Assembly (NCBI GenBank): GCA_031761405.1
Contig: JASEVX010000011.1
Coordinates: forward strand, 37,883,048-37,947,047
Direction of reading: 5' to 3'
Length of the DNA stretch: 64,000 bases
Source of the DNA: Serripes groenlandicus
Lineage: Eukaryota > Mollusca > Bivalvia > Cardiida > Cardiidae
The notes below the pieces were generated by a model. That model made no database searches, was not told the DNA's origin, and saw only the letters and a program-made list of their open reading frames with translations. The number at the start of each line of letters is the position of its first letter. Positions within the stretch are counted from its first letter, which is position 1. Shown piece by piece: positions 4,091 through 62,280 of the stretch. Position numbers and translations under genes: made by a program.

Positions 4091-4219
4091 AATAGCATCG
4101 TTCTCATTCTTCGTCAACTGCTTCTGATTCAAATTGTAAAACGTTTTCCACCTTCGTTTGTTTTGTCTTGATCTCTGAATAGCAATCGAGTGAACATCTG
4201 TCCCACCGTCTATCCACAA
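4091..4219 (-). CDS. chrd: chordin exon: middle of CHRD repeat 3
   Basis: 129 nt, phase 0 to 0, 43 codons. The acceptor is 'caatttatgttttacag' and the donor GCTATT|GTGAGT. The peptide 'LWIDGGTDVHSIAIQRSR' followed by 'QNKRRWKTFYNL' directly continues L-S-Y-K of the previous exon and fits vertebrate CHRD3 (strand, small turn, hydrophobic strand, then a basic patch). The following exon is not found before the left edge, so the gene continues beyond the window. Confidence 0.88.
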
Positions 4220-7200: not shown

Positions 7201-10200
7201 GTAAAGTTGCATTATTGTTGTCTTATTATGTTCAAATCCCATAACTTGCAATGCATATCCGTTCAACCGCTGAATATGTATGAAAAAGAATATCCGACAG
7301 GGACAGTGTCGTTATTAGAGAAGACATGTGGAGCTGCCCATAAGGAGCAATTTAACATTTCTCTTGATGTATATAACTTAAATAGTGTTGAAAAGGAGCA
7401 TGAACTTATCCCAGGTGTCACATGTATCACAACGTGACAAATCCGACAGAGACGGGCAACGTGGCGGCTGTACTAAAACAAAACAATCCGAATACCATTT
7501 AATATAGTGCTACATGTCTTCTTTAATTAATTTATAAATGAGCCGTTCCACGAGAAAACCAACATTATGGACTCTGCTTAGGAATCCTTACTCTATACCT
7601 CTATCCCCGGAGACGGTATGTGTCGGTCCGGATTAGATGCCGCGGATTGCGCAGGCTGATCTGGATCGCTACATTACGCAGAAACCATAATGTTATCTTT
7701 CTCGTGGGACGGCTCAAATATGTTTTTTATGACTAGATACAGAACAGAACAGAATTGTATTAACGTATACATATTTATATAAATGTATCTTGTTACATAC
7801 AAAACATGTTTACATAATATTTAACATCATGTGATACATGTATGTTGTATAAGTTTAAATATATTCTATTCATATCTCGAGGGCTTGGCGTGAAACAGTT
7901 GTAACTAAAATTGGATATTTTTGTTACCAAGGTTAATCCCCTCTCCAGCAAGTCTTTATAAGCGTTAAAACATTTTTTCTTGGTAAACAATGGAAATTTA
8001 GGTGCCATTGCTCGTTCTGAGCAATGGCACCTAAATTTGCATTGTTTTCAAAGGGGTCAAGATTGCCCCTAAACCAGGGTTTTCAAAATAGGATTTTAGT
8101 TACAACCGTTTCACGCTAAGCCCTAGCTCTGCTTGTTCACACTTACTATTCAAGGCTTACTTAATTATCTAAAACATGAGACTACACCGCTAGTTAATTA
8201 GTACCAGTTTGCTTATCAAAATAAATACCAAATCGGATAATTAAACCTCCAAACCGATGGATTTGTCTATCAGTCTAAATAAAACCCGTACCTACATGCT
8301 TTACATGATGAAGTAACGTACGGCGTTTGGGAACGAAACCATCGGTATTGTAAAAGCCTAACACGGTAGTTAAAGTAGTAACAGAAGAAGTAGTAGTAGT
8401 GGTAGTAGTAGCAATAGTAGTAGTAGAAGAAGTAGTTGTAGTTGTAGTGGTATAAATAGTAATAATAGTAGTAACATAAGTAATAGCAGTAGTTGTAGTA
8501 GACGTAGTAGTAGTTGTAGTTATTGTAGTATTAGTAGTAGTGAAACGATGAGTAAAAGTATAAGCAGTAGTAGTAGTTATTGTAACTTAGAAATAGTAGT
8601 AGTTGTAGTTATTGTAGTGTTACATTTGTAGTAGCAGTGAAAAGATGAGTAATAGTATAAGCAGTAGTAGTAGTTTTTATTGTAGTAGAAGTAGTAGTAG
8701 TTGTAGTTATTGTAGTGTTAGTAGCAGTGAAAAGATGAGTAATAGTATAAGCAGTAGTAGTAGTTATTGTAACTTAGAAATAGTAGTAGTTGTAGTTAGT
8801 GTAGTGTTACATTTGTAGTAGCAGTGAAAAGATGAGTAATAGTATAAGCAGTAGTAGTAGTTTTTATTGTAGTAGAAGTAGTAGTAGTTGTAGTTAGTGT
8901 AGTGTTAGTAGCAGTGAAAAGATGAGTAATAGTATAAGTAGTAGTAGTTATTGTAACTTAGAAATAGTAGTAGTTGTAGTTATTGTAGTGTTACATTTGT
9001 AGTAGCAGTGAAAAGATGAGTAATAGTATAAGCAGTAGTAGTAGTTTTTATTGTAGTAGAAGTAGTAGTAGTTGTAGTTAGTGTAGTGTTAGTAGCAGTG
9101 AAAAGATGAGTAATAGTATAAGCAGTAGTAGTAGTTATTGTAACTTAGAAATAGTAGTAGTTGTAGTTATTGTAGTGTTACATTTGTAGTAGCAGTGAAA
9201 AGATGAGTAATAGTATAAGCAGTAGTAGTAGTTTTGATTGTAGTAGAAGTAGTAGTAGTTGTAGTTATTGTATTGTTAGTAGCAGTGAAAAGATGAGTAA
9301 TAGTATAAGTAGTAGTAGTAGTTATTGTAGTGTTAGTAGCAGTGAAAAGATGAGTAATAGTATAAGTAGTAGTAGTAGTTATTGTAGTGTTAGTAGCAGT
9401 GAAAAGATGAGTAATAGTATAAGTAGTAGTAGTAGTTGTAGTTATTAAGTATTCTTAAAATAAAATAATCAGTATATGAGCCGTCCCGCGAGAAAACCAA
9501 CAGTATGACCTCTGCGTAATATATCGATCCAGATCAGCCTGCGCAGTCCGCGCAGACTGATCCGGGTCTACACATTCCGTCTTAGTGGGATAGAGGTATA
9601 GAGTAATGATTCCTAAAACAGAAAATTAACAGGAGGCTAGAAGTGTCTCTCCGAGTAAGCCTGCGCGGCATGCTTAGGCTGATCCGGGTCTATACGTTAC
9701 TCTGAGTCCACACTGTTGGTTTTCTCGCGGGACGGCTCATATATACTAACCTTATATGACAGTGCACCGTTTTCCTGTAGTCGACCAATCATATAACCCG
9801 TAACATTGTGGTCTTTCACGGTCAGGGTGGCCATTATATCTACACAAACACAAACAGTCGTAAATGAACGGCCCTCTGCGAAATCCAACTGTTAGGCATT
9901 TTTGACCAGTGTGGACCCAGATCAACCATCGCATCCACGCATTCTGATCTGGTTCTAAACTATTCACCAATTAGTCACTGAAGAACATATCTGTAAACCA
10001 GTTAGATCCTTAGGATGCATGAACATGAAGGTCTTTTGTTGTACACGTGTAACCATCAGACTTAGGTTGGTTGTCGCAGAGCACTGCTTATGTATTATAC
10101 AATGTGTCAACCAACAACGGAATCTGTTTTGGGTGTGTTTCATCCAAAAGTAGTTCGTTTTGATGAATAATTATATTACACCATTCCGTTTCGATGAGAA

Positions 10201-19200: not shown

Positions 19201-22200
19201 AATTCTGTCCGATAAGAATCAGTCCACGACAATTTTTAATAATATTAAACAAAACATTTTTCAAGTTCAATTTAAATTGGTCTTCCCGTTAAAACCAACA
19301 TAAAATAATAAAACTTACTCATTATACACAAACATTCGAACGCACGCATGTCACACTCGATCGCTGAATTATTCTATCGATTTTTTTCGTTTTCGTTATG
19401 TACTAGATTGATAATACAGTGAGGATTCTTTATACCTTAAACGACTTTAAACACTGCAGCAGCAGTATTTTACTTGCTTTCTAATAATTGGTATTGTTTC
19501 TACCAATATCCTATATTTTCTTTTTCTTTAAAAAATGTTTTACAGTTACTGTTAATTGTGTTACCTATGTAAAAAAATGTATGATAACAAAAAAAACGGG
19601 CTGTCATGTGAAAGTTGGAAAAAAAAAAAAAAAAAAAAGAATCAGTTAATAGATTTGTAACTTTCGTAAATTCTGCCCGGTAAAACTGAGTTAGTAGAGG
19701 ATCAGGTCAGGGTGATCATAACCTTCACTGGTCAGAAGTTAAGTTGTAACTTTCGTAAATTCTGTACGGTAAAATTGAGTTAGTAGCGGGTCAGGGTGAT
19801 CTTAACCTTCACTGGTCAAAATTTAATGTGGAACTTTCGTAAATTCTGTCCGATAAGAAGTCAGGGTGACCTTCTTAACCTTCACCGGTCCGAATTTAAT
19901 TTGTAACTTTCGTAAATTATGTCCGATAAGAAGTCAGGGTGATTTTAACCTTCACCGGTCAGAAGTTAATTTGTAACTTTCGTAAATTCTGTCCGGTAAA
20001 ATGAGTTAGTAGAGGGTCAAGGTGATCTTAACCTTCACTGGTCAGAAGTTAATTTGTAACTTTCGTAAATTCTGTCCGATAAGAAGTCAAGGTGACCTTA
20101 ACCTTTCACCGGTCATAATTTAATTTGTAACTTTCGTAAATTCTGTTCGGTAAAACTGAGTTAGCAGAGGGTCAGGGTGATCTTAACCTTCACCGGTCAG
20201 GATTTAATTTGTAACTTTCGTAAATTATGTCCGGTAAAACTGAGTTAGTAGAGGGTCAGGGTGATCTTAAGCTTCACTGGTCAGAATTTAATTTGTAACT
20301 TTCGTAAATTCTGTCCGATAAGAAGTCAGAGTGATCTTAACCTTCACTGGTCAAAATTTAATTTGTAACTTTCTTATATTCTGTCCGATAAGAAGTCAGA
20401 GTGATCTTAACCTTCACTGGTCAAAATTCTGTCCGATAAGAAGTCAGAGTGATCTTAACCTTCACTGGTCAAAATTTAATTTGTAACTTTCCACATGGAC
20501 TGGCTCAATTATTATTTAATTCTGTTCCACCTATAAGACGCATCTGCAGCAGACGATCTTCAAAAACATTGTGGCAAAAGGAGAAATTGCTCATAATGAG
20601 CAATTTCTCCTTTTGTAACAATGTTTTCAACTTTTATTCAATACTTATACTTTCATTTATGAAAGAGATGTTGCATATTTTTGCCCAGATGTTACCAAAG
20701 TCGTCTGCTTCATATTTGATGTATGTGGGAAAGGGTTAAACAAAATTGAGCAATTCCTACCTATTTTCGCCAATATGTTTTCAAAAGTCGTCTGTTGTAG
20801 ATGGTTCATAATACGTCTATACATGTATGACGGCTATTGTTAACCCTTTCCCACATACGGCAACTTTACAGCAGACTACTCTGAAAACATGAAAGGTCTC
20901 CATAAAAGATAGCTTAATTATTGAATAAAGTTGAAAATATTGTGGCCAAAGGAGAAATTGCTTATCATGAGCAATTTCACCTTTGGCCACAATATTTTCA
21001 AAAGTCGTCTGCTATTGCGTCAAAATACGTCTGCAGGTGGGACAGGGTTAAAACACACTTACCTGATCGGACAAGTCGTGGTCGTATTACTCCTGTAACT
21101 GTATCACCGTTTCGTGACGTCACACGACCATGAAGGCGCCCTCTAGCGATTTGCTTAGACATCTGTCTATCCAGTCGGAGCCGACCAATCAATTTATTTT
21201 CCTGTTTTAGAACAAAAACACACATTTCAATCATAAGAGTCGCGCCAGGCGGTTTGGGGGTCTTATTGAATCTCCCGTAACTGGATCACAATACATGAGT
21301 GCTATGGTATTAACTCTTTCCCACATACAACAGATCTGCAGCAATACACATAATGACATAATGACAGTATTGTATTGACGTTAACTATATATTTTCTAGT
21401 CAAACAACACATCGTAGTTATGTATACAATACAAAAAAAAAACATAACATTATATACAATGAACATGAATTATACACAAAATCGAATATTTATCATTCAA
21501 AATGGAAAAAATAAATAGAAAAATACTTCCTATATACTATATTAAAAAATAAATAGAACTTCCATAAATGTGTTGGTCCTCCTTGATATAATAGGAGTAT
21601 ATTACTTAATCATATCTTACAGTAGCAATGTGTAACAGAATATTGTTATTTAAACTATTACAGCATACGACTTTGGAAATATCTAGAAACAAATATGGAA
21701 ACTTTCCACCAAATAGATCGAACCTTTACACAATATAATTGTTGCCTCTACAAAAATTAAGCGTAATGTATCGACCCAGATAAGCCCGTGAAGCCTAATC
21801 CGGGCCGACACATTCCGTATCAGAGGAATATAGATATAGAGATATGATTCCTGAAACCACAGGAGGCGAAAAGTTTCTGTCCGGATCAGCCTGCGCGGCA
21901 CGATTAGGCTGATCCGGGTCGATACTTTACGCAGAGTCCACAATGTTGGTTTTCTCGCAGGACGGCTCATATCAATATATCTGCGTAATGTATCGACCAG
22001 ATCAGCCTGCGCTGTCCGCGCAGACTGATCCGGCCGACACATTCCGTCTTAGGGGGATAGATGTATACAGTAGTTATTCCTGAAACAGAAAATCCACAGG
22101 ATACGAACAGTGTCGGTCCAGGTAAGCCTGCGTGGCATGTTTAGGCTGATCCGGGTCGATACTTTACGCAGAGTCCACAATGTTGGTTTTCTCTTGGAAC

Positions 22201-55200: not shown

Positions 55201-58200
55201 AGCATGCTTAGGCTGATCCGGGTCGATACTTTACGCAGAGTCCACAATGTTGATTTTCTCACGAGACGGCTCTACACATTGATTATTGCCAAGCTACGCC
55301 CCTGGTTAAAGTACAAGAACTTTATAACGAAATGAGAGATTTTTATAGGAATTGCGGGAGTTCAGCAGGATAATGCTCACGGTTAATCTGTACTACTGGG
55401 AATGAACCATGCGAAGATTTAAAATCAAATTCGGAATTATGACCTTAAACACATGCCACAACTATATAGATTTCTGCAAATGTGCCAGGTTCTATCTGAA
55501 CCTCAATCTATCTGTATAATGGATTCGCTTTACTCTTTCCGATGTAGAATAAATCTGCTGCAGACAAATTGAAGACATCTGGGTTAACATATAGAAAATT
55601 ACGTTTAGCAAATGATTGGTGGTTGGATTCGGCCAGTAGGCGTCCGACTGATTGTGTTTTGAAAGTCTGACCAAGCCCATGATATGATTTTCTACGGTTC
55701 TTCTCCGTCAAAACGATATTAGAATAGAACAGAACAGATGTTTTCTTTTCAACTTAAGAATAGACAGCTCATGGTCGATAAACACATATACATAAAGAAA
55801 TGGTTAAGACAATGCAACAGTTGAAAAATATTAATCAATTAAGTTTAAATTCAGATTTATATGCATACATGTATGTATATAAATACACATATAATTATTA
55901 TATACATATACCCATACACATACCTACATATATGTATATTAATTGCAATAAGATATTAATGTTTTCAAGAAAGAAAGTACCGTCTAATAAGGATGCTTTT
56001 TTTTTTCAAATAGAGAGTTTTCTCATCACAAAAGCCTTGAGGCAAAATGACGCCAGATTACATAAATATATTTTTCTTTCGGTGTTTAAGAGTTCTATGA
56101 ACTTGTACATACTTGGACGTTAGACATGTTATAGCAACTTTAGAATACATATGTATATATGAACAAGTGCATATAAATAGGAGATAGGGTACCGTGTTTA
56201 CTGTGTTGTTGACTTGTCTCTTGGGAGGGCTGTACCACACCTACGCCTGCATCGTTGAATTGGTCCTCAAACAAGGTATCTGTAATATAAAAGTAAGCCG
56301 AGTATGGGATGAGGCTGCAAGTGCATACACGAACGGATGTTGTGATAGTTTAATGTATGCACGAGTTCGCCTTTTCCCTTCAATGACCGTCGCCATAAAA
56401 TATTTGAGCCATATTCCACTTGAAAACCAACAGTATTGTCTGTGTAATGTATCGACCCATTCCGCGCAGGCTAATCCGGGCCGACACATTCCGTCTCAGG
56501 GGGATAGAGGTACATGTATAGAGTAATAATTCCTGAAACAGAAATCCACAGGTTTTCTCGTGGAACAAATACAATTACAAATAAAAATAAAAATATTTTA
56601 TTCAGTAATGTAAGGCCTCCGGCCCATTATACATAATGTACATGTACATAATAAATTCATTGGAGTGACATCATAAACTTCTTGAAGATATTCAAATATA
56701 GAAATAATTAGTATAATTAGTATACAACACATACTTTATGATTTAATTAGAGACCTGTTCATCTAAAGGTAATTGTCTGGTTTTAAATGCCACAATTAGA
56801 TATGTTACCAGTGATTTTACATATGTGGGTCTACACTCACTTATTATGTCATAAAACAACACTGTAGTTGGTTATGAAGTTGTCCAGACTTCATGGAAAT
56901 AAAAAGGCCGAAGTTCATTGTAAACTGGACATATTAACAAAAAGTGAGAATCATCCTCAACAACCTAGCAGTTTCTACCAAGACAAATATTACAGAATCT
57001 CATTTATTAATCGTTATTTCTGACAAAAAAAAGAAGCGTACGTTAAAAGTCCCAGACCTATATGCAATGTGAAATTTTATGTACATACACTAGTTTGTGA
57101 AGTTTTATTTAGTCAAGTAATTATTAAAAGCTAAGTTTAAGAAATGCTGAGAAATATCAGAGGGATATACTCTTAATTAAATATTGCTATAATCTCGAAA
57201 GTTGAGTTTGTAATAGATCAACTCGTTGTCTTAACACACCAAGCAGAGCGGGTTCTTGGTTGTCGATGTAATTCGATTGGTGCATTCGGCTAGCCCATAC
57301 ACAAAAGTGCTTTGTGAAAGCATAACAGTATTGATCTTTCCTTTCTTCGTTGCTTTCTAAAGCGTCAGATGTCACCTGGAGCTAAGATACAGGTTAAAAC
57401 GTTACCTTTGTCCTGACAAATCCTGCAGCACGTGTGAGGTCGAAGTCTAGGCTTGGTACAGGAGACATTTGGACATTCTCTCCTTATATTCCGACACAGA
57501 ACTTTACCTTCAAGTTGAACAATACTCCTCTCTACGACCTGAAATAAACCGACGAAGATAGTGAGCGGTCGGAGCTCCTCGGCAAAACTCGTAACGATAG
57601 CTACTTTGATACGTCTTTGACAACAAATCTATGTAATATGTAAATGAAATTAAAGAACAAACAAACTAAAAACAAACCTATAAAATAATATAGTGAGGTA
57701 AACGAAGAAATTGCTCACTGATCAATTTCTCCCTGTTACCACAATGTTCTTAAACATCTTACGATCACCTCTGTAACAGACAGTTGAAACTACATATCCA
57801 AGGCAGTTCAAGCCGAGACCACACAGTACATTTAGTCACTGATAGACATAGGCCAGTTAGTCTAAGGATAATTATATATATCGTCCAAAGTGTACATAGT
57901 CTTATTTAAAACATTATCACCTGCTTAACAACCCTAGCATCGTCAGCGTATCTCTTGACAATCACTGAAGGCAGCGCTAGACCGAAACGTTACACACCGT
58001 GAGCTAACTACAGCTTCACTGAACGCATAATCGGATGGAGTGAGGTGTAAATGTGTTGTTGGAATGTCTACCGTTAGCTAACTACAGCTTCACTAAACGC
58101 ATGATCGGATGAAGTGAGCTGTAAATGTGTTGTTGGAATGTCTAGCGTAAGCTAACGTAAACGGTTCACTGACTGCACTGCTGTTACGAACCATTACACT

Positions 58201-61159: not shown

Positions 61160-61198
<39 letters not shown>

Positions 61199-62280
61199 TT
61201 CCCCCCTCCTTCTTATAATAGACAATAAGTTTACAACGGAACGAAAGTGAAAACATTGTAGGAAAAGCAACTTTTTTTTTTGAACAATATTCAATTTCCC
61301 ACAACGTTTTCAGTAGTTGTCTGTGGTCAAAGGCATACTATTTCGTATGTTTAGGGGAAATGGGGTGAACCACATAAAACAACTGAAAAATCAAATCTAA
61401 GCTATTTTCAAAAATGTATCGTATTCGTACGGTGACGTTTCAATATATACATGTAATTCCTTTTTTCATGAGATGTTTAAAACACAGACGATTCTTACAA
61501 TATCATATCAGGAAAGGGAAAATGGTATAACAACATCAAAGTAGAATGAATATGTAACGGGAGACCGTTATCGTCTCAGACAGTGTTTTAATGTTGATTG
61601 GTTAGTGTTCTTCACCGCTTTGAACACTTTTTCCGTTATATCACGTCGTTTAGTACTACTGGTCCATTTATTCTGACACTAGCCAGTCAGTCGTAATGCG
61701 AACCAGCGACCTCCCGCACCGGAAGCAGACGCTCTACCACTAGAGCTACCACTAGGGCTACCACTAGGGCTACCACTAGGGCTACCACTAGGGCTGTCAC
61801 ACAGTTTTAAACTACATTTCGAAGGCGAACTTCAACCACTTGTCATATACACAAAATTGACTATTATCTCTCCAATGTTTTAAAGGTAGACGATTCTTAA
61901 ATTATTATATCAATGAAAAGGAAATCGATAGATTATTTCCAATACGCAAACACATTTTTAGGCATCTGCCGCAGAGTGCATTTAAAATACATTGTGAAAG
62001 GAAGACTTGCTCATATAATGAGCAAGTTCATTTTGCTTGAAAGATTTAAGGCCCATTTAATAGTTACACTTGATAATGACTTTCCAAATGGTAGCCAATA
62101 TGTTTTCAACGTAGCCTGCAGCAGATTCGTCGCATGTGTGAAAGGGTTAACGAGATCAAAGTAGTAGAAGTATTCTAACCTGCGCACACTGACATTTCAC
62201 ACAATCCATCACACCGTGGGGTTCTATTTTGGGGCTCCATTTGTCTCCGACCATATAGAAATGGTTCCCCAGCCAGCATC
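4091..62280 (-). CDS. chrd: chordin (short gastrulation) homologue, partial gene, 10 exons
   Basis: Chordin is a secreted extracellular antagonist that binds BMP ligands and, with Tolloid proteases and Twisted gastrulation, shapes dorsoventral BMP gradients. Ten exons give about 386 codons: one VWC domain with all ten cysteines, CHRD1, CHRD2 and most of CHRD3, in the order known for chordin. In transcript order the exons are 62280-62180, 57538-57406, 44425-44299, 42292-42199, 39945-39804, 37889-37758, 36678-36605, 21201-21063, 9839-9751 and 4219-4091. Start and end phases chain without conflict (1-0, 0-1, 1-2, 2-0, 0-1, 1-1, 1-0, 0-1, 1-0, 0-0). VWC plus CHRD repeats is, as far as I know, specific to chordin/Sog. 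Missing here: signal peptide, end of CHRD3, CHRD4 and the C-terminal VWC domains. The introns are very long and repeat-filled. Identity rests on by-eye comparison with remembered vertebrate chordin. An unseen small exon could still lie in the 13-kb or 15-kb intron. Confidence 0.92.
4488..5235 (-). mobile_element. SINE-1 copy split by a 17-bp satellite
   Basis: 4488-4614 matches the tail and body of SINE-1 (gattgattggttg, gccgttttcgacattt, atcacgacgacc, gtgtttcctgactttctcacacc). 5113-5235 carries the rest, including 'ttgtcaaaagtcggaaag' and a tRNA-like region near 'tgtttgaactcctgg'. An array of 17-bp units sits between them. Comparison copy: 43716-44005. Confidence 0.8.
4615..5112. repeat. 17-bp satellite inside a SINE
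   Basis: About 29 copies of 'actgattgtacacatat' with variants (attgaacacatatactg). A 17-bp unit reads as a 17-residue repeat in every frame, which explains overlapping minus-strand open frames that are not coding. Confidence 0.93.
5581..5847. mobile_element. GS-type MITE
   Basis: About 267 bp with terminal inverted repeats 'gaaccgtcccgcgag' and 'ctcacgggacggctc'. The interior has the family's imperfect palindrome 'agcctgcgcagtccgcg' and 'cattccgtctcagg'. Related to the copies at 9476, 11065 and elsewhere. Confidence 0.85.
6300..6593 (+). mobile_element. SINE-1, tRNA-derived, near full length
   Basis: A B-box-like 'gagttcgaatcccggc' lies at 6353-6368 near the head. The body has 'ttgacaaaagtcaatgcg' and 'gtgtgggaaaaccagg'. 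The tail is 'ccgtgatataactgag', 'aaaacggcgttaaac' and (caat)n. The A box is degenerate. The tail block is shared with other SINE families in this window. Confidence 0.82.
7083..7155. mobile_element. possible hAT-type terminal fragment
   Basis: 'tagggatggcaacgaatacc' followed by repeats of 'attcgaatattcg' resembles the end of a hAT family transposon. No opposite end was located. A similar 'agggatggcaacgag' occurs near 46905. Confidence 0.35.
7538..7716. mobile_element. GS-type MITE, internally deleted
   Basis: About 179 bp, inverted ends 'atgagccgttccacgag' and 'ctcgtgggacggctca'. It is in opposite orientation to the 9476 copy and lacks part of the interior. Confidence 0.82.
7878..8126. mobile_element. 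CG-type palindromic MITE
   Basis: Ends 'cgagggcttggcgtgaaa' and 'tttcacgctaagccct', with an inner palindrome around 'attgctcgttctgagcaat'. Same family as 36830, 40046 and 49549; the right end is mutated. Confidence 0.87.
8378..9447. repeat. AGT-rich array with ~187-bp higher-order period
   Basis: Trinucleotide-rich 'agtagtagt' DNA in which a larger block recurs: the string 'aaaagatgagtaatag' followed by 'agtttttattgtag' or a variant starts near 8640, 8827, 9011 and 9198. The block contains non-AGT segments such as 'attgtaacttagaaatag'. The 81-residue serine-rich open frame here is a by-product. Confidence 0.92.
9476..9740. mobile_element. GS-type MITE, full length, next to a splice donor
   Basis: 265 bp with about 27-bp inverted ends 'atgagccgtcccgcgag' / 'ctcgcgggacggctcat'. 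It ends 10 bp from the 5' splice site of the exon 9839-9751. Confidence 0.93.
9751..9839 (-). CDS. chrd: chordin exon: start of CHRD repeat 3
   Basis: 89 nt, phase 1 to 0, 29 complete codons. The acceptor is 'tttgtgtttgtgtag' and the donor ATAAG|GTTAGT. The peptide 'DIMATLTVKDHNVTGYMI' then 'GRLQENGALSYK' matches the T-G-x-x-x-x-L-x-x-N-G-x-L-x-Y opening of chordin CHRD3. N-V-T is a possible N-glycosylation site. A full-length MITE ends about 10 bp downstream of the donor. Confidence 0.9.
9895..10010. repeat. dispersed repeat, also at 36195-36310
   Basis: 'gaccagtgtggacccagatc', then an inner imperfect palindrome and 'tgatctggttctaaac', matching 'gaccagtgtagatccagatc' and 'tgatctggctctattc' at 36198-36250. 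Probably another small nonautonomous element; ends not defined. Confidence 0.6.
10512..10556. mobile_element. 45-bp fragment of piggyBac-like MITE
   Basis: This stretch is the reverse complement of 27253-27299, part of the intact MITE at 27126-27347, so it is a residue of the same family. Confidence 0.7.
10917..11000 (-). mobile_element. SINE-3 fragment
   Basis: Contains 'gcgaagttagcattacgact' / 'ctggtatcaggctgg' / 'agtactgg', the reverse of the SINE-3 body seen at 12120-12180 and 61640-61710. Confidence 0.55.
11065..11330. mobile_element. GS-type MITE, full length
   Basis: 266 bp, ends 'atgagcagttccacgag' and 'ctcgtggaatggctcat', interior as in the 9476 copy. Flanked by AT-rich sequence; target duplication not resolved. 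Confidence 0.9.
12044..12275 (-). mobile_element. SINE-3 copy
   Basis: Reverse orientation: a degenerate tail near 'ctttcaacattt' and 'cagttataccatgacg', body 'cagtactactgg' and 'cgagacagtcgtaat', and a tRNA-like B-box region 'gggattgaacccgcg'. Same family as 41310 and 61591. Confidence 0.65.
12360..12515. mobile_element. piggyBac-like MITE, diverged
   Basis: TTAA at 12356-12359 then 'cccattacttcacatag', and the family core 'aaaattgctcaaaacgagt' with 'tgcaatattttcaac'. The right end is not clear. Confidence 0.55.
12870..12925. other. perfect 12-bp inverted repeat (hairpin)
   Basis: CAGTGAAGACTC (12870-12881) and GAGTCTTCACTG (12914-12925), with a 32-nt loop. Function unknown. Confidence 0.6.
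13740..13815. mobile_element. piggyBac-like MITE fragment
   Basis: 'gacaacattgtagcaaaatg', 'gatattgctcatgctgac' and 'tagtcgtctgctgcagat' are pieces of the TTAA-flanked MITE family. Confidence 0.55.
14025..14220 (-). mobile_element. SINE-1 head fragment
   Basis: 'tgacgtttgtcacaatgac', 'ttttgtcaatcatcggaa' and 'gggttcgaaaccacgacc' match the tRNA-like head of SINE-1 in reverse orientation. Confidence 0.65.
14191..14530. repeat. three-copy tandem repeat, about 103-120 bp unit
   Basis: Each copy starts with 'cgttaccgacc' (about 14192, 14310, 14413), followed by 'ataatctagcact', 'ataatcttct' and 'tagaaacgtttg'. The first copy begins inside the SINE-1 head, where the same motif occurs. Confidence 0.8.
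14904..16019 (+). CDS. LINE-B ORF1, PHD-like zinc finger and coiled-coil protein
   Basis: 371 residues from the ATG at 14904, which has A at -3 and G at +4 (the frame is open 36 nt further upstream without an ATG). The N-terminal 90 residues hold a PHD-like cysteine cluster: C-P-K-C, C-x2-C-C-x-C, F-C-N-G-C, W-T-C-N-V-C. A charged heptad-rich region (about 95-175) suggests a coiled coil, followed by a conserved basic domain ('RVMNLIIFNLPE', 'DAFRIG') that in CR1 and L2 ORF1 proteins binds RNA. Expected role: chaperoning the LINE RNA. It ends at TAG (16017-16019) directly before the in-frame endonuclease. Intact in this copy. Confidence 0.85.
   Translation: MANNMMSSTPIVRNKTAKRARVGSNTCPKCDIIITTDSQCLTCCVCELNFCNGCTNISPILAKALKEDTTQNFKWTCNVCKQNFPSMTGLSSQLRSIEEKTDYRLNILEQKVTDLDTGLNKRVHEQISNVKPSLIEEIKTEIKASLQDEVRKEIREIEDQKTRVMNLIIFNLPESSHQSGPSRKIHDIKKIKELCTRIDVEEIDIKDAFRIGNPDPKKTRPLKIILNNKQHRKNILDNVHKIKYLPEQLGLKNCICVKDLTIRQRETNKMRREAKPKRLSTRTTVRPNENHGYLDVTIHDRENNSIPELEKSQEMSQLLLKPVTQLPFLPNDYSSQAPLSSPFSDLEETIIGGTNMQEDMTIASPNNVNVD
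16020..18934 (+). pseudogene. LINE-B ORF2, endonuclease-reverse transcriptase with one frameshift
   Basis: APE-type endonuclease followed by CR1-type RT. The endonuclease starts in the ORF1 frame straight after the amber stop ('YTNADSLLNKLDEL', then A-I-T-E). Near 16400 one base appears lost and the frame continues to 18934 with L-G-D-F-N (about 16490), L-G-N-S-D-H-N (about 16725), 'KSPGSDGIHP', N-Y-R-P-I-S-L-T, 'YLDFRKAFDTVPHRRLL', G-I-P-Q-G-S-V-L-G-P, F-A-D-D-T (18068) and a C-terminal 'INTWNNLPEELIAAKSVN' block typical of CR1/L2. All catalytic residues are visible, so this is a young copy disabled by one frameshift. The 3' end is an (aaaaggt)n tail at about 18950-18975. Confidence 0.88.
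19655..20483. repeat. tandem array of two unit lengths, 70 and 84 bp
   Basis: Eleven units beginning 'tgtaactttcgtaaattctg'. The long form continues 'ggtaaaactgagttag' and the short form 'gataagaagtcagg'; both end 'ccttcactggtcagaa'. The order is L L S S L S L L S S with a final truncated S. A single diverged unit lies earlier at 19190-19225. Confidence 0.93.
20484..20735. mobile_element. piggyBac-like MITE
   Basis: Right end 'gtgggaaaggg' before TTAA (20736-20739). Core hairpin 'gaaattgctcataatgag' and mirror arms 'aacattgtggcaaaagg' / 'ccttttgtaacaatgtt'. The left end is mutated and abuts the tandem array. Confidence 0.82.
20844..21047. mobile_element. piggyBac-like MITE next to a chordin splice donor
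   Basis: TTAA at 20840-20843 and 21048-21051. Ends 'ccctttcccacatacgg' and 'gcaggtgggacaggg'. Core 'attgcttatcatgagcaat'. The right TTAA is 11 bp from the donor of exon 21201-21063. Confidence 0.88.
21063..21201 (-). CDS. chrd: chordin exon: end of CHRD repeat 2
   Basis: 139 nt, phase 0 to 1, 46 codons plus one base. The acceptor is 'gtttttgttctaaaacag' and the donor ATCAG|GTAAGT. The peptide 'ENKLIGRLRLDRQMSK' is followed by 'ARGRLHGRV', which fits the G-x-L-x-x-x-L strand and the G-x-L-x-G-x-V/I end of a CHRD repeat. Its first 42 nt and acceptor are duplicated 1.37 kb upstream in transcript order (22569-22528). A TTAA-flanked MITE begins 11 bp inside the following intron. Confidence 0.88.
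21761..21970. mobile_element. GS-type MITE, lacking left end
   Basis: Starts inside the family at 'gcgtaatgtatcgaccc' and ends 'ctcgcaggacggctcat'. It is followed within 10 bp by a second partial copy. Confidence 0.85.
21981..22207. mobile_element. GS-type MITE, lacking left end, second copy
   Basis: Starts 'ctgcgtaatgtatcgacc' and ends 'ctcttggaacggctcat'. Two copies broken at nearly the same internal point in a row suggest local duplication or recombination. Confidence 0.85.
22519..22569 (-). pseudogene. duplicated chordin exon fragment (possible in-frame pseudo-exon)
   Basis: Copy of the acceptor and first 42 nt of exon 21201-21063 with one synonymous change (E-N-K-L-I-G-R-L-R-L-D-R-Q-M), then unrelated sequence F-L-F and a GTGAGC donor-like site. 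It would form a 51-nt, phase 0 to 0 exon. Use is unproven. Confidence 0.7.
23095..23200. mobile_element. piggyBac-like MITE fragment
   Basis: 'gaaatcattgtgacaaaagg', 'ttcagcagatgtgtc' and 'aaaatgcgtctgcaaatg' belong to the TTAA MITE family. Confidence 0.5.
24713..24931. mobile_element. piggyBac-like MITE
   Basis: TTAA at 24709-24712 and 24932-24935. Contains 'gccgacgacttttgaaaac', core 'attgctcataacaagc', 'ttcgtctgctgcagag'. Terminal bases diverged. Confidence 0.75.
26153..26465 (+). mobile_element. SINE-2 with tripled tRNA-like head
   Basis: Three 39-bp repeats start 'gccgtggtcgagtggttag' at 26164, 26203 and 26242, each with an A box. A single B box 'ggttcgatcc' is at 26289-26298. The body reads 'gagcaaggcacattttc', 'agtactggtttgtttacc', and the tail 'cgccgtgatataactgaa', 'aaagcggcgtaaaa'. 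Another copy lies reversed at 45880-46105. Confidence 0.88.
26570..26815. repeat. 46-bp tandem repeat, about 6 copies
   Basis: Unit 'ggatctatactgttcacaaa' plus 'aaggaacgtgtaccgttta', diverged copies. It sits at the end of duplicated segment B', whose other copy has only one unit. Confidence 0.85.
27126..27347. mobile_element. piggyBac-like MITE, intact reference copy
   Basis: 222 bp, TTAA on both sides (27122-27125, 27348-27351). Inverted ends 'ccctttccctcatat' and 'atgagggaaaggg'. Subterminal 'tctgcagcagac' / 'gtctgctgcaga'. Central hairpin 'attgctcaaaacgagcaat' at 27202-27220 between arms 'aaaagaagaa' and 'ttctcctttt'. TTAA targeting with CCCTTT ends points to piggyBac; no transposase present. 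Confidence 0.9.
27590..27805. mobile_element. piggyBac-like MITE
   Basis: TTAA at 27586-27589 and 27806-27809. Ends 'ccctttcccatatcc' and 'gtatgttggaaagggg'. Interior diverged ('aaaacattgtggcaaaatg', 'tcgtctgctgtagag'). Confidence 0.87.
27970..28066. mobile_element. GS-type MITE, right-end fragment
   Basis: 'gtccgggttagcctgcgcgg' to 'ctcgcgggacggctca'. Confidence 0.8.
28095..28395. repeat. 57-bp tandem repeat, 5 copies
   Basis: Unit contains 'tgtatgtgggtagaggttct', 'aaaagaacagcgagatt' and 'aaacaagatcacggcgg'. A 19-residue periodic open frame results. Confidence 0.9.
29041..35606. repeat. 33-bp minisatellite, about 200 copies, with higher-order repeats
   Basis: Unit 'agtgtgtattaccaccg' plus 'tacacagctacatcat'. 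Variants differ at a few positions (ccaccg/ccaatg, cagc/caac, catcat/cattat). Long blocks recur at 1711 bp in the left half and at 343, 544 and 887 bp in the right half. Stop-free in most frames on both strands, so it yields long but meaningless open frames (up to 265 codons). Confidence 0.97.
36195..36310. repeat. dispersed repeat, also at 9895
   Basis: 'gaccagtgtagatccagatc' through 'tgatctggctctattcgac'. See 9895-10010. Confidence 0.6.
36605..36678 (-). CDS. chrd: chordin exon: middle of CHRD repeat 2 (74 nt)
   Basis: 74 nt, phase 1 to 0, 24 complete codons. A very good acceptor ('gtgtttctttatgtttaag') and donor (AAACG|GTAAGC) frame a peptide 'GSDFYVTIEKDTEIIYQH' ending 'LLRLSET'. It aligns by pattern with the vertebrate CHRD2 segment of short basic/hydrophobic strands after L-x-F/Y. 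The assignment rests on splice sites, phase and position, because the exon is too short to be diagnostic alone. A palindromic MITE lies about 150 bp upstream of its acceptor. Confidence 0.8.
36830..37075. mobile_element. CG-type palindromic MITE
   Basis: 246 bp with about 33-bp inverted ends starting 'cgagggcttggcgtgaaa', flanked by the direct repeat ATAT (36826-36829, 37076-37079). Central hairpin 'attgctcagaacgagcaat'. Lies about 150 bp upstream of the exon 36678-36605 acceptor. Confidence 0.93.
37588..37718. mobile_element. piggyBac-like MITE fragment
   Basis: 'aaaacattgtggcaaaagg', 'agaaatgtctcattacaagc' and 'tttctgcagatggctcaaa' match one half of the family. Its edge lies about 40 bp from the donor of exon 37889-37758. 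Confidence 0.6.
37758..37889 (-). CDS. chrd: chordin exon: start of CHRD repeat 2
   Basis: 132 nt, phase 1 to 1, 43 complete codons. The acceptor is 'ttttgttttcttgcag' and the donor AGCAG|GTAAAT. The peptide opens '(A)LFEAVLSPTTKNGNGG' and continues 'TSQLSYMTLLQDN'. This is the F-x-A-x-L opening, Gly-rich turn and L-x-Y/F strand expected at the start of chordin CHRD2. Degraded MITE sequence begins about 40 bp into the following intron. Confidence 0.92.
38223..38960. repeat. 44-bp tandem repeat, interrupted
   Basis: Unit 'ggtatttggaataattggt' plus 'ccatgaatatcggtttatg' and 'acaaat'. About 11 copies after 38480 and one or two before 38282. Units become shorter and more diverged towards the right. 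Confidence 0.92.
38283..38480 (-). mobile_element. LINE 3'-end insertion in the 44-bp array
   Basis: 'taagtaagtaagtaaatatt' then 'ttattaaagtgacatgtgta' and 'atcatgggcctataagtcact'. The same tail order ((taag)n, 'cagtgacatgtgtac', a GGCC segment, 'agtcact') occurs at 60281-60413, which suggests the reversed 3' end of a LINE. Confidence 0.6.
39804..39945 (-). CDS. chrd: chordin exon: end of CHRD repeat 1
   Basis: 142 nt, phase 0 to 1, 47 codons plus one base. The acceptor is 'ctattccatattgcag' and the donor ACAAG|GTGTGG. The peptide contains 'VPSRTISLISQGDIWCSI' and 'ATHKDGEISGRLTL'. The T-H-x-x-G-E-I-x-G-x-L block is the hallmark C-terminal strand pair of CHRD repeats. Choosing this donor rather than GTAAGG further downstream keeps the phase and joins to A-L-F-E-A-V-L at the start of CHRD2. 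Confidence 0.92.
40046..40292. mobile_element. CG-type palindromic MITE
   Basis: 247 bp, flanked by ATTT on both sides (40042-40045, 40293-40296). Perfect inner hairpin around 'attgctcagaacgagcaat' (40147-40165) with 'ggtgcc' / 'ggcacc' arms. About 100 bp upstream of the 39945-39804 exon acceptor. Confidence 0.94.
41310..41480 (-). mobile_element. SINE-3 fragment
   Basis: 'gttttacgtcgcttttaac', 'agatatttcacggcg', 'accagtactactggtcc' and 'cgcgagtaagtcg': the reversed tail and body of SINE-3. Confidence 0.65.
41967..42160. mobile_element. TTAA MITE, second family (PB3)
   Basis: TTAA at 41963-41966 and 42161-42164. Ends 'ccctttcgatgcc' and 'ggcagtgaaagag'. Central hairpin 'agacagctcgtaacaagctg'. 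Related copies at 51297-51500 and 54742-54939. Confidence 0.85.
42199..42292 (-). CDS. chrd: chordin exon: middle of CHRD repeat 1
   Basis: 94 nt, phase 2 to 0, 31 complete codons. The acceptor is 'ttcgttcatatttcag' and the donor GGAAAG|GTATTG. The peptide 'LKNPLSLRFEDERGSILI' matches the chordin segment that follows the first CHRD strand (leucine-rich turn, then R-F-x-D-x-x-G-S-I/V-L). A piggyBac-like MITE ends at a TTAA about 34 bp downstream of the donor. Confidence 0.9.
42325..42480 (-). mobile_element. SINE-1 fragment
   Basis: 'catcacggcggccagttcatc', 'caccagtactccacacaac' and 'ttccaagcaaccagttccc' match the reversed SINE-1 body at 43760-43850. Confidence 0.65.
42618..42795 (+). mobile_element. 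V-SINE copy, diverged
   Basis: 'gactggtgtagtgtaggc' head, 'tggttagatctgcaagaagc', 'agcttgtttcttaatcaatg' tail. The order matches the SINE at 52978-53187. Confidence 0.55.
43093..43300. repeat. unclassified dispersed repeat, copy 1
   Basis: 'aattacgccaaatacatccg', 'tatcaccagaattcattg' and 'aatatatggcattg' match 60843-61065 in the same order over about 210 bp. Confidence 0.75.
43716..44005 (-). mobile_element. SINE-1, near full length
   Basis: Reversed: (gatt)n, 'ggccgttttcaacaattt', 'atatcacggcgaccag', 'ttttcccacaccagtac', 'gtcaaacatcggaaag', tRNA-like 'gggtttcgaaaccac' and 'cgctgccgactgag'. Confidence 0.82.
44299..44425 (-). CDS. chrd: chordin exon: start of CHRD repeat 1
   Basis: 127 nt, phase 1 to 2, 41 complete codons. 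The acceptor is 'tttaatttaattgcag' and the donor TCAAG|GTGTGG. The peptide reads 'LFALLTGSMKRSHHPVK', later 'FNYYIRFS'. This is the typical CHRD opening (x-F-x-A-L-L-T-G, a basic turn, then an aromatic-rich strand) and resembles vertebrate chordin CHRD1 closely at the same place. The AG left at the end plus the A that starts the next exon makes Arg. Confidence 0.92.
45050..45275. repeat. 21-bp tandem repeat
   Basis: About 11 copies of 'ttatgtctaacttacatgtt', diverging to the right. Unrelated to the 21-bp satellite at 1-936. Confidence 0.85.
45880..46105 (-). mobile_element. SINE-2 copy
   Basis: Reversed: 'ccgctttcaacattatttc', 'atatcacggcgacag', 'ggtaaacaaaccagtac', B box in 'gggatcgaacc', and A box in 'cgctaaccactcgaccac'. 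It has one A box, unlike the copy at 26153. Confidence 0.87.
46805..46990. repeat. about 62-bp tandem repeat, 4 copies
   Basis: Each copy has 'gactctccgttaagagctc' followed by 'atataaa' and a variable stretch ending 'ccctcg' or similar. Confidence 0.75.
47182..47354. mobile_element. piggyBac-like MITE, diverged
   Basis: TTAA at 47178-47181, 'cagcagacgactttcgaaa', right end 'gtgtggtaaaggg'. Confidence 0.65.
47514..47728. mobile_element. piggyBac-like MITE
   Basis: Core 'atttgctcacaatgtgcaa', arms 'cgaaaaagaag' / 'ctttttcgg', right end 'tgttagaaagggggg' before TTAA (47729-47732). Confidence 0.75.
48401..48442. repeat. poly-C tract
   Basis: About 40 nt of nearly pure C. A similar run lies at 61142-61206. 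Length is likely unreliable in the assembly. Confidence 0.9.
49007..49333. mobile_element. piggyBac-like MITE remnants
   Basis: 'agcagatgacttttgaaaac', 'ttccacaatgttttcaaa', 'aaagtcgtctgttgcagat' and end 'gtgggaaagggc', preceded by an older partial copy. Confidence 0.65.
49549..49779. mobile_element. CG-type palindromic MITE
   Basis: Ends 'gagggcttggcgtgaaacg' and 'gtttcacgccaaaccc', hairpin 'attgctccttctgagcaat'. Flanks ATAT and ATGT, an imperfect 4-bp duplication. Confidence 0.9.
49819..50023. mobile_element. GS-type MITE, shortened
   Basis: Ends 'atgagcctttctagg' and 'gttggttttctcgtggc'. Interior 'ccccgagacggaatgtgtcg'. Confidence 0.78.
50074..50135. repeat. 10-bp tandem repeat
   Basis: About six copies of 'ttgttttatc'. 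Confidence 0.85.
50209..50490. repeat. 31-bp tandem repeat, about 9 copies
   Basis: Unit 'cacgtattcctcataacat' plus 'atgtaaaattcg', highly uniform, with small indels in three units. Confidence 0.93.
51297..51500. mobile_element. TTAA MITE, PB3 family
   Basis: 'accctttcgctgttaaagg' to 'cagtgaaagag' with TTAA at 51501-51504; the left TTAA is mutated to TTCA. Same order of internal motifs as 41967-42160. Confidence 0.8.
51855..51930 (+). mobile_element. SINE-1 tail fragment
   Basis: 'ggtgaactggctgcagtg', 'aaccgcataaaacccaac', 'caatcaatta'. Confidence 0.65.
51991..52216. mobile_element. piggyBac-like MITE
   Basis: 'caccctttttaacatac' to 'tgcaagtgttgagagg'. It directly abuts the next copy, sharing the TCAA at 52217-52220. 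Confidence 0.72.
52221..52439. mobile_element. piggyBac-like MITE
   Basis: 'ccctttcaaacatgcagacg' to 'gtttgtgggaaagtc', core 'attgctcatgatgaacaat', TTAA at 52440-52443. Confidence 0.85.
52779..52905. mobile_element. piggyBac-like MITE fragment
   Basis: Core 'tttgctcatcacgagcag', 'aaagtcgtatgctgcac'. Confidence 0.6.
52917..53390 (-). mobile_element. SINE-1 with a V-SINE inserted in it
   Basis: SINE-1 segments 52917-52977 ('ttaacgtcgttttcaacaat') and 53195-53390 ('gtgtttcctggctttctcac', 'gtgtcaaacgtcggag') are separated by the V-SINE at 52978-53187 and its second AGTTCAC. Confidence 0.85.
52978..53187 (+). mobile_element. V-SINE, tRNA-derived, with target-site duplication
   Basis: 210 bp. 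A box within 'tggtgcagcggtagagcg' (about 52990-53005), B box 'ggttcgagtcc' (53032-53042), tail 'gcttgtttcgcaatcg' then A/T-rich. Flanked by AGTTCAC at 52971-52977 and 53188-53194. Confidence 0.88.
53411..53632. mobile_element. piggyBac-like MITE
   Basis: TTAA at 53407-53410, 'cccacatacagcaaaactg', core 'actgctcgttttgagcaat', end 'atatgtgggaaagg'. Confidence 0.82.
54296..54475. repeat. 90-bp tandem duplication
   Basis: Two copies starting 'gactataaacc', each with 'aaaatctagagcgtaaac', 'gagataattaacaaaac' and 'gtattaactattacaaaag'. Confidence 0.92.
54742..54939. mobile_element. TTAA MITE, PB3 family
   Basis: TTAA at 54738-54741 and 54940-54943. 'ctctttcagcgccacagg', hairpin region 'cagatcgtgacgagctg', end 'aagaaagag'. 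Confidence 0.82.
54944..55304. mobile_element. hAT-like element containing a GS-type MITE
   Basis: Perfect 14-bp inverted ends CAGGGGCGTAGCTT / AAGCTACGCCCCTG, a common hAT-type terminus, flanked by GTTAA on both sides. The interior is largely a GS MITE lacking its left end (55032-55271) and a poly-G run. No transposase. Confidence 0.82.
55032..55271. mobile_element. GS-type MITE, lacking left end
   Basis: Starts 'tctgcgtaatgtatcgacc', the same internal breakpoint as the copy at 21981, and ends 'ctcacgagacggctc'. Confidence 0.83.
55530..55610. mobile_element. piggyBac-like MITE fragment
   Basis: 'tactctttccgatgtag', 'tctgctgcagacaaattg'. Confidence 0.45.
56404..56567. mobile_element. GS-type MITE, internally deleted
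   Basis: 'gagccatattccacttg' and 'aaaccaacagtattgtctg' on the left, 'aggttttctcgtggaac' on the right. Confidence 0.75.
56575..56710 (-). mobile_element. possible LINE 3' end
   Basis: 'aaaatattttattcagtaat' and 'ggcctccggcccattata' recall the reversed LINE tails at 38283 and 60281. Confidence 0.35.
57406..57538 (-). CDS. chrd: chordin exon: second half of VWC domain 1
   Basis: 133 nt, phase 0 to 1, 44 codons. The acceptor is 'ggtttatttcag' and the donor AAAG|GTAACG. The peptide contains 'GKVLCRNIRRECPNVSC' and ends in 'TCCRICQDK', giving C5-x6-C6-x4-C7-x9-C8C9-x2-C10. With the preceding exon this completes a canonical ten-cysteine VWC fold, which in chordin binds BMP. N-V-S is a possible N-glycosylation site. 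The next recognised exon also starts in phase 1, so direct splicing is possible, but that would leave almost no linker before CHRD1 (see findings). Confidence 0.92.
57685..57790. mobile_element. piggyBac-like MITE fragment
   Basis: 'agaaattgctcactgatcaa', 'tttctccctgttaccacaat'. Confidence 0.5.
58003..58148. repeat. 73-bp tandem duplication
   Basis: Two copies of 'agctaactacagcttcact', 'aacgcat', 'gatcggatg', 'gtgttgttggaatgtcta'. It stands directly before the 47-bp array and shares 'ttcact'. Confidence 0.88.
58190..59080. repeat. 47-bp tandem repeat, about 19 copies
   Basis: Unit 'gttacgaaccgttacactac' plus 'gtgggggtaccaaactg' and 'tttcactgat'. Extremely uniform apart from small indels near 58680-58960; each unit carries GGTACC. 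Confidence 0.97.
59301..59425 (+). mobile_element. V-SINE copy
   Basis: 'gacagtggtacaatggtaac' (A box region), 'atgttcgaatcccgtg' (B box), 'tttcgcaatcgatgtaaa' tail. Shortened in the middle compared with 52978. Confidence 0.8.
60281..60413 (-). mobile_element. LINE 3' end with TAAG microsatellite, cut by gap
   Basis: (taag)n, then 'cagtgacatgtgtac', 'ccggcccgacggacc' and 'agtcact'. Same order as 38283-38480. Confidence 0.6.
60414..60613. other. assembly gap, 200 N
   Basis: Exactly 200 N, a placeholder; the true length is unknown. Confidence 0.99.
60843..61065. repeat. unclassified dispersed repeat, copy 2
   Basis: 'aattacgccaaatacatccg', 'accatcaccagaatgcattg', 'tgtttgaaagtgaatg': matches 43093-43300. 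Confidence 0.75.
61142..61206. repeat. poly-C tract
   Basis: Run of C interrupted only by TT near both ends. The glycine-rich frame opposite it is an artefact. Confidence 0.95.
61230..61350. mobile_element. piggyBac-like MITE fragment
   Basis: 'gtgaaaacattgtagg', 'ttcccacaacgttttcag'. Confidence 0.45.
61591..61795 (-). mobile_element. SINE-3 with expanded A-box region
   Basis: Reversed: 'ttccgttatatcacgtcg', 'tagtactactggtcca', 'ccagtcagtcgtaatgcg', B box in 'gcgaaccagcgacc', A box in 'cgctctaccacta', then five 12-bp copies 'gctaccactagg'. Confidence 0.82.
61935..62146. mobile_element. piggyBac-like MITE near a splice donor
   Basis: 'atctgccgcagagtgcattt', core 'cttgctcatataatgagcaag', 'cctgcagcagattcg', end 'tgtgtgaaaggg' and TTAA at 62147-62150. 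Confidence 0.75.
62180..62280 (-). CDS. chrd: chordin exon: first half of VWC domain 1
   Basis: 101 nt, phase 1 to 0, 33 complete codons. It follows a strong pyrimidine-rich acceptor (minus strand 'tttgtttaattaag') and ends CAG|GTTAGA. The peptide opens with Cys-Trp-Leu-Gly, has an aromatic F-Y and K-W-S-P segment, then 'HGVMDCVKCQC'. This is the C1-x24-C2-x2-C3-x-C4 half of a von Willebrand factor type C domain, and the Trp-x-Pro and G-V-M-x-C positions match the first VWC of chordin. The upstream exon, which should carry the signal peptide and end in phase 1, is not visible before the window edge. A MITE TTAA boundary lies about 29 bp into the following intron. Confidence 0.9.

What the first reader, a model, noticed from the sequence alone, without database searches (positions are those of the whole stretch)
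4091..62280. Chordin gene dispersed as ten small exons through a repeat-saturated window
The exons are too short to stand out as open frames, yet they encode VWC1, CHRD1, CHRD2 and most of CHRD3 in order. All nine junctions are phase-compatible and every splice site is GT-AG. Chordin is central to BMP-based axis formation and has a patchy record in spiralians, so an intact locus matters. More than 97 percent of the span is intron.
Basis: partly seen in the sequence, partly recalled or inferred. Interest (0 to 1): 0.85.

Follow-up and report, generated by a model that had tools for sequence, protein, structure and literature searches.

The report
A real, stretched-out clam chordin gene
The window holds the first half of a genuine chordin gene, the secreted blocker of BMP signals that helps set an embryo's back-to-belly axis, in a clam-like animal, with small exons scattered through long repeat-rich introns; it is a good but ordinary member of a known gene family.

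Summary
The finding is right. All ten exons are on the minus strand at 62280..4091, GT-AG, and the joined frame reads through nine of nine junctions. The protein matches human chordin (PDB 9rd6, E 1.7e-20) and mollusc chordins. Collinear tblastn chains score 123-202 for five relatives, against at most 25.3 for 100 shuffled queries.

Corrections: an eleventh exon (56279-56241, VWC1-CHRD1 linker) was missed. The window holds half the gene; the host genome continues it through nine exons to a stop codon 40 kb beyond the left edge: 20 coding exons, 101.9 kb, VWC1-4xCHRD-VWC2-4; no signal-peptide exon found. CHRD scores stay below Pfam's cut-off (21.6 against 24.1). Chordin is not reported as patchy in molluscs (PMC13121700).

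Most novel point: in heterodont clams, this one included, both cysteines of the disulfide tying human CHRD1 to the CHRD2-3 linker are missing (five of five with both sites readable), and CHRD3-4 diverge strongly (19-21% identity to Mercenaria) while VWC modules are kept (54-69%). New member of a known family; modest interest.

The parts
62180..62280 (-). exon 1: first half of VWC1 (CWLGNHFYMVGDKWSP...CQCAQ); entry after one base of a Gly codon, so at least one upstream exon exists
   Evidence: tblastn 80% identity to Mya over 35 aa, E 1.6e-15; acceptor score weak (0.4)
57406..57538 (-). exon 2: second half of VWC1
   Evidence: tblastn E 1e-12 to Mercenaria
   Evidence: motif shared with Mercenaria, Mactra and Haliotis; on its own only a weak tblastn hit (E 18; 18.5 bits)
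44299..44425 (-). exon 4: start of CHRD1
42199..42292 (-). exon 5: middle of CHRD1
   Evidence: weak donor score (0.2)
39804..39945 (-). exon 6: end of CHRD1; Glu stands where human Cys235 and Haliotis Cys231 stand
37758..37889 (-). exon 7: start of CHRD2
36605..36678 (-). exon 8: middle of CHRD2
21063..21201 (-). exon 9: end of CHRD2 (MSKQIARGRL...RPRL), the best conserved CHRD exon; linker Cys (human Cys403, Haliotis Cys392) absent
   Evidence: (58% identity to Ruditapes, E 6.8e-13)
9751..9839 (-). exon 10: start of CHRD3
4091..4219 (-). exon 11: middle of CHRD3; last exon in the window; gene continues left of base 1 with nine exons at C113:37864277..37843426
   Evidence: (weak alone, E 2.1-4.6)
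22527..23085 (.). 88.8% identical copy of 21159-21712: repeats the acceptor and first 43 nt of exon 9, then diverges; a truncated exon copy, not part of the model

Best explanation
The minus strand carries the 5' half of a protein-coding chordin gene of a bivalve, probably a heterodont clam. Shown: eleven in-window and nine further exons on the same contig join in frame into a 792-residue protein with a stop, in the order VWC1, linker, CHRD1-4, VWC2-4. Inferred from the family: a secreted BMP antagonist whose VWC modules hold BMP dimers and keep them from the receptors, whose CHRD region is a spacer and matrix-binding part, and which a Tolloid/BMP1-type protease cuts after VWC1 and VWC3 to release BMP; it probably helps set BMP activity along the embryo's dorsal-ventral axis. 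The conserved FEDQF-like stretch of the missed linker exon sits where the first cut is made in vertebrate chordin.
For: Exon anatomy and reading frame. 9rd6 E 1.7e-20 for the window part, 6e-56 for the full model. Clam and abalone chordins. Chance controls. VWC in four stretches, 124 bits. Purifying selection proxy: window part keeps 65 of 68 residues invariant in P0002, P0003, P0004 and P0007 against 101 of 307 variable columns equal to Mercenaria; full model 133 of 151 against 187 of 598, and 39 of 39 invariant Cys. Continuation on the same contig: 9 of 18 genome matches lie on C113, 3 in the window and 6 downstream, and the other 9 cover only the VWC2 part (query 593-677). Mechanism from passages: PMC4988381, PMC13382577, PMC13121700.
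Against: No RNA evidence. CHRD score below Pfam's gathering cut-off. With smaller comparison sets the share of invariant residues kept is lower, e.g. 114 of 175 for Mya + Dreissena. No convincing signal-peptide exon in 40 kb upstream. Several splice sites score weakly (exon 1 acceptor 0.4, exon 5 donor 0.2, exon 18 acceptor -1.0). The structure prediction of the Mercenaria relative failed (mean pLDDT 43.9) and its fold search gave no chordin in the 50 listed matches and none at E <= 0.001. The linker motif is not seen in Mya or Dreissena.
Confidence: 0.96

Rival explanations
1. A relic or pseudogene of chordin: exons of a once active gene stretched and eroded by repeats.
For: Weak CHRD profile score, long model branch (1.03), a truncated copy of part of exon 9, no signal-peptide exon found.
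Against: No stop or frameshift in 792 codons over 20 exons; invariant residues and all 39 invariant cysteines kept; other clams show the same CHRD weakness (CHRD 27.1, 20.0, none, 14.6 bits for P0002, P0003, P0004, P0006 against 74.3 for Haliotis).
Confidence: 0.03
2. Another VWC protein (chordin-like CHRDL, BMPER/crossveinless-2, NELL) read as chordin.
For: VWC modules match NELL2 and collagen chains too; nine VWC-only matches elsewhere in the genome.
Against: The CHRD-region exons align with human chordin residues 170-318 of the chain and with the relatives' CHRD region throughout; the best solved-structure match is chordin by more than 20 orders of magnitude in E (6e-56 against 3.6e-07); four VWC in chordin order.
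Confidence: 0.01
3. Chance assembly of short open segments.
For: Single exons score weakly; exon 11 alone has E 2.1-4.6.
Against: Chain controls; the second half of the gene found in order outside the window with exons chosen before it was known.
Confidence: 0.001

Closest known systems
Chordin-like proteins of heterodont clams (Mercenaria mercenaria P0002, Ruditapes philippinarum P0001, Mya arenaria P0003 and a second model P0005, Dreissena polymorpha P0004, Mactra antiquata P0006)
   Same: Same domain order; weak CHRD signal; absence of both inter-CHRD cysteines where readable; 39-43% overall identity to the full model.
   Different: Shorter linker between VWC1 and CHRD1 in the model (13 residues of exon 3, Mercenaria about 29); no linker modelled between VWC3 and VWC4 (a 48-nt candidate exon without homology support lies at C113:37849551-37849504).
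Abalone chordin-like (Haliotis rufescens, P0007)
   Same: Domain order, linker motif SSFEDQYS, 31% identity.
   Different: Strong CHRD profile (74.3 bits, three stretches) and a fifth VWC stretch; keeps both inter-CHRD cysteines, C231 and C392.
Human chordin (PDB 9rd6, 9qvv, 9igm)
   Same: VWC1, CHRD1-2 start and VWC2-4 align.
   Different: Disulfide Cys235-Cys403 (PMC13382577, passage) has no counterpart here; Cys235 aligns with Glu. The place of Cys403 in human sequence is recalled; the Haliotis counterpart is.

Membership tests
Chordin | N-terminal VWC1 | tested here: met
   Pfam VWC 28.0 bits, cut-off 27.6, over exons 1-2
Chordin | Four CHRD domains after VWC1, by alignment to chordins | tested here: met
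   CHRD1 and start of CHRD2 to human chordin; CHRD1-4 blocks aligned to clam and abalone chordins, with 37, 47, 21 and 19% identity to Mercenaria; CHRD3-4 lie partly or wholly outside the window and are weak
Chordin | CHRD profile above Pfam's gathering score | tested here: not met
   20.2 (ten exons) and 21.6 (full model) against 24.1; a detection threshold that 3 of 4 tested heterodont chordins also miss
Chordin | VWC2-4 after the CHRD region, then stop | tested here: met
   Outside the window: exons 15-20 on C113; four VWC stretches
Chordin | Signal peptide, secretion | tested here: inconclusive
   No convincing exon in 40 kb upstream with a one-exon ATG search
Chordin | Tolloid/BMP1 cleavage after VWC1 and VWC3 | tested here: inconclusive
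   Conserved FED-Q/S-F stretch in the linker exon of 4 of 6 sequences with the linker; likeness to the vertebrate site is recalled; none proposed after VWC3
Chordin | Inter-CHRD disulfide as in human (Cys235-Cys403) | tested here: not met
   Absent in the window and in P0001-P0004; a structural feature of human chordin, not known to define the family
Chordin | Binds and blocks BMP | not testable with these tools
   Needs protein assays
Chordin-like (CHRDL1/2) | VWC modules without CHRD domains (organisation as in PMC9977687 legend, passage, and recalled) | tested here: not met
   CHRD region present

The most novel reading that the evidence does not exclude
Heterodont clams have loosened the core of chordin: the covalent tie between CHRD1 and the CHRD2-3 linker was lost by paired loss of both cysteines, and CHRD3-4 now evolve fast, while the BMP-binding VWC modules are kept. 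If so, chordin here works mainly as two VWC blocks on a soft spacer with altered matrix (heparan sulfate) binding, so that BMP range in clam embryos is set differently from abalone or vertebrates.
Probability: 0.35. Interest if true: 0.5.

Novelty: new member of a known kind. Interest (0 to 1): 0.3.

Why it matters
Chordin is a main determinant of BMP gradients and its spiralian record bears on how the dorsal-ventral axis evolved. The locus adds an open-frame bivalve chordin over 102 kb, shows that short exons in such genomes are easily missed, and points to a paired cysteine loss that can be tested in clam embryos and in vitro.

Tried and rejected
Pfam on single exons: CHRD not detected; VWC halves only weak, E 0.0053-0.01. 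Structure: AlphaFold2 of P0002 with a four-row alignment, mean pLDDT 43.9; Foldseek 898 matches at E <= 10, none at E <= 0.001, no chordin among the 50 listed. Some Cu,Zn superoxide dismutases rank high, as would suit the SOD-like CHRD fold of PMC13382577, but the model is too poor to give this weight. Ten other ORFs of at least 100 aa: no Pfam match (ten of the 65 ORFs were tried there; the other long ones are mostly tandem-repeat frames or RT ORFs). No tRNA. Tree placement of the animal: unresolved (supports 57-92; the splits that place the model have 60 and 45). Searching the own genome for other CHRD genes (PF07452): not completed. P0005 was left out of A3 and A4 as a second model of the Mya gene; P0001 was left out of the tree and of the chain test.

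Full report
What was claimed. Ten small exons on the minus strand, 62280 to 4091, encode VWC1, CHRD1, CHRD2 and most of CHRD3 of chordin.

Check of the observation. Joined, they give 386 codons without a stop; every intron is GT-AG and the frame stays on chordin-like sequence through nine of nine junctions. The phase column in that script is cumulative; the test is that the translation stays in register with the relatives, which it does. The joined protein meets Pfam VWC (28.0 bits, cut-off 27.6) and reaches CHRD at 20.2 bits, below the cut-off of 24.1. Against solved structures the best match is human chordin, E 1.7e-20, with VWC1 and CHRD1-CHRD2 aligned. A search of 5.8 billion proteins, limited to proteins of 0.55 to 1.75 times the query length, found one hit at E <= 0.001, Ruditapes chordin-like, 7.9e-46, 41% identity. 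From it came Mercenaria, Mya and Dreissena chordins, and from their alignment a second Mya model, Mactra and Haliotis.

Chance control. tblastn pieces of five relatives were chained in order along the window. Minus-strand chains score 123.5 to 202.4 (bits above 18 per piece); plus strand at most 14.1, reversed window at most 24.2, 100 shuffled queries at most 25.3. A few pieces in the real chains are spurious.

A missed exon. Mercenaria and Haliotis gave weak extra pieces at 56280. There, acceptor TTATATTACAG and donor GTAG|GTGTGG bound a 39-nt exon, phase 1 to phase 1, reading D-TLFEDQFNDAGV, beside DTSYEDQFN (Mercenaria), DTSFEDSFH (Mactra) and DSSFEDQYS (Haliotis). Mya and Dreissena do not show the motif. 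Longer forms of the exon with weaker donors in the same phase are possible and would be nearer the relatives' linker length.

The rest of the gene. The host genome (1.76 Gb) was searched once with success. The window is C113:37883048-37947047. Of 18 matches to Mercenaria chordin, 9 are on C113 in gene order (3 in the window, 6 left of it), and the other 9, on four other contigs, cover only query 593-677, a VWC part. Nine 10-kb stretches were fetched. Nine further exons were placed: 37864277-37864130, 37862267-37862059, 37859282-37859169, 37858749-37858579, 37854818-37854725, 37852820-37852684, 37852023-37851918, 37845286-37845186, 37843527-37843426 with stop TAA. The second and third of these, in CHRD4, were chosen by splice score, phase and likeness to Mercenaria rather than by a tblastn hit. 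In all 20 coding exons, 19 GT-AG introns of 419 to 22,860 bases, 2,381 coding bases in 101,902. The full model has four VWC stretches (124 bits) and CHRD at 21.6, and matches human chordin at 6e-56. No convincing signal-peptide exon was found in 40 kb upstream.

Is it under constraint? In the window part the model keeps 65 of 68 residues that are identical in Mercenaria, Mya, Dreissena and Haliotis, and equals Mercenaria at 101 of 307 variable columns; with other comparison sets it keeps 114 of 175, 95 of 118, 77 of 88 and 91 of 127. Over the full model it keeps 133 of 151, and 39 of 39 invariant cysteines. This is a proxy: alignment favours agreement, and no dN/dS could be computed.

What is unusual. 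Identity to Mercenaria by block: VWC1 69, CHRD1 37, CHRD2 47, CHRD3 21, CHRD4 19, VWC2 54, VWC3 63, VWC4 64%. Pfam CHRD scores are 74.3 bits in Haliotis but 27.1, 20.0, none at E <= 1, and 14.6 in Mercenaria, Mya, Dreissena, Mactra. The crystal structures of human chordin show a disulfide, Cys235-Cys403, between CHRD1 and the CHRD2-3 linker (PMC13382577, passages). Haliotis has a cysteine at both places (C231, C392). At the first the window has Glu and P0001, P0002, P0003, P0004, P0006 have Tyr; at the second the window and P0001-P0004 have a gap; Mactra's model lacks that stretch. So both are absent in five of five heterodont sequences with both sites readable. Mapping of Cys235 rests on the alignment with an inferred offset of ten between chain and paper numbering; the human context of Cys403 is recalled. 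Only one non-heterodont mollusc was compared, so where the loss happened is open. Searches with chordin plus bivalve, Mercenaria, clam, disulfide + mollus (listings only) showed no title about it.

How it likely works. From passages: VWC1 and VWC3 bind BMP2/4, tolloids cut after VWC1 and VWC3 (PMC4988381); the four CHRD domains are SOD-like, largely dispensable for BMP inhibition, and bind heparan sulfate (PMC13382577); chordin expression shapes the BMP gradient in brachiopod and other embryos (PMC13121700). That this clam gene does the same is inference.

PMC13121700 (passages, section 7) says chordin was lost in many annelids and in platyhelminths but is present in all sampled lophotrochozoans except specific annelid lineages. 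Lottia work by Tan and others is known to me only from a reference list; it was not held.

Surroundings. Tandem arrays 22.4% of the window, total detectable repeats 49.2%. Ten of eleven exons do not overlap tandem arrays or RT ORFs at all and neither does the eleventh; two exons touch duplicated sequence, exon 9 by 43 nt and exon 10 by 6 nt.

Verdict. A real chordin gene, half in the window, new member of a known kind; interest modest.

Noticed in passing
29039-35602: 6.6-kb satellite array of a 33-bp unit (197.6 copies, 79% matches) in intron 8; its frames stay open over long stretches only because the unit length is a multiple of three.
   Followed up: partly
14853-18934, + strand: LINE-like retrotransposon antisense in intron 9: a zinc-finger-like ORF, then endonuclease and reverse transcriptase frames broken by a frame change near 16.4 kb.
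   Followed up: partly
885-2294, + strand: Second, partial reverse-transcriptase ORF (RVT_1, 119.8 bits) beyond exon 11.
   Followed up: no
9473-9745, 5581-5847, 11062-11335, 21761-21972, 21980-22211, 55029-55272 and fragments: Dispersed repeat of about 270 bp that also matches its own reverse complement (69%), like a fold-back element; one copy starts directly after the donor of exon 10.
   Followed up: partly
22527-23085 against 21159-21712: 559-bp duplication that copies the acceptor and first 43 nt of exon 9; the copy then runs into other sequence.
   Followed up: partly
26160-26272: 39-bp tandem unit (GTGGTCGAGTGGTTAGCG...) that recalls the head of a tRNA-derived SINE; ARAGORN finds no tRNA.
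   Followed up: no
60414-60613: Run of exactly 200 N in the intron between exons 1 and 2, an assembly gap.
   Followed up: yes
P0007 (Haliotis rufescens chordin-like): Five VWC stretches instead of four; the extra one is at the C-terminus.
   Followed up: no
C963:127.75-127.95 Mb, C1185:77.48-77.54 Mb: Clusters of VWC-type matches elsewhere in the host genome (three and three matches), perhaps other multi-VWC genes.
   Followed up: no
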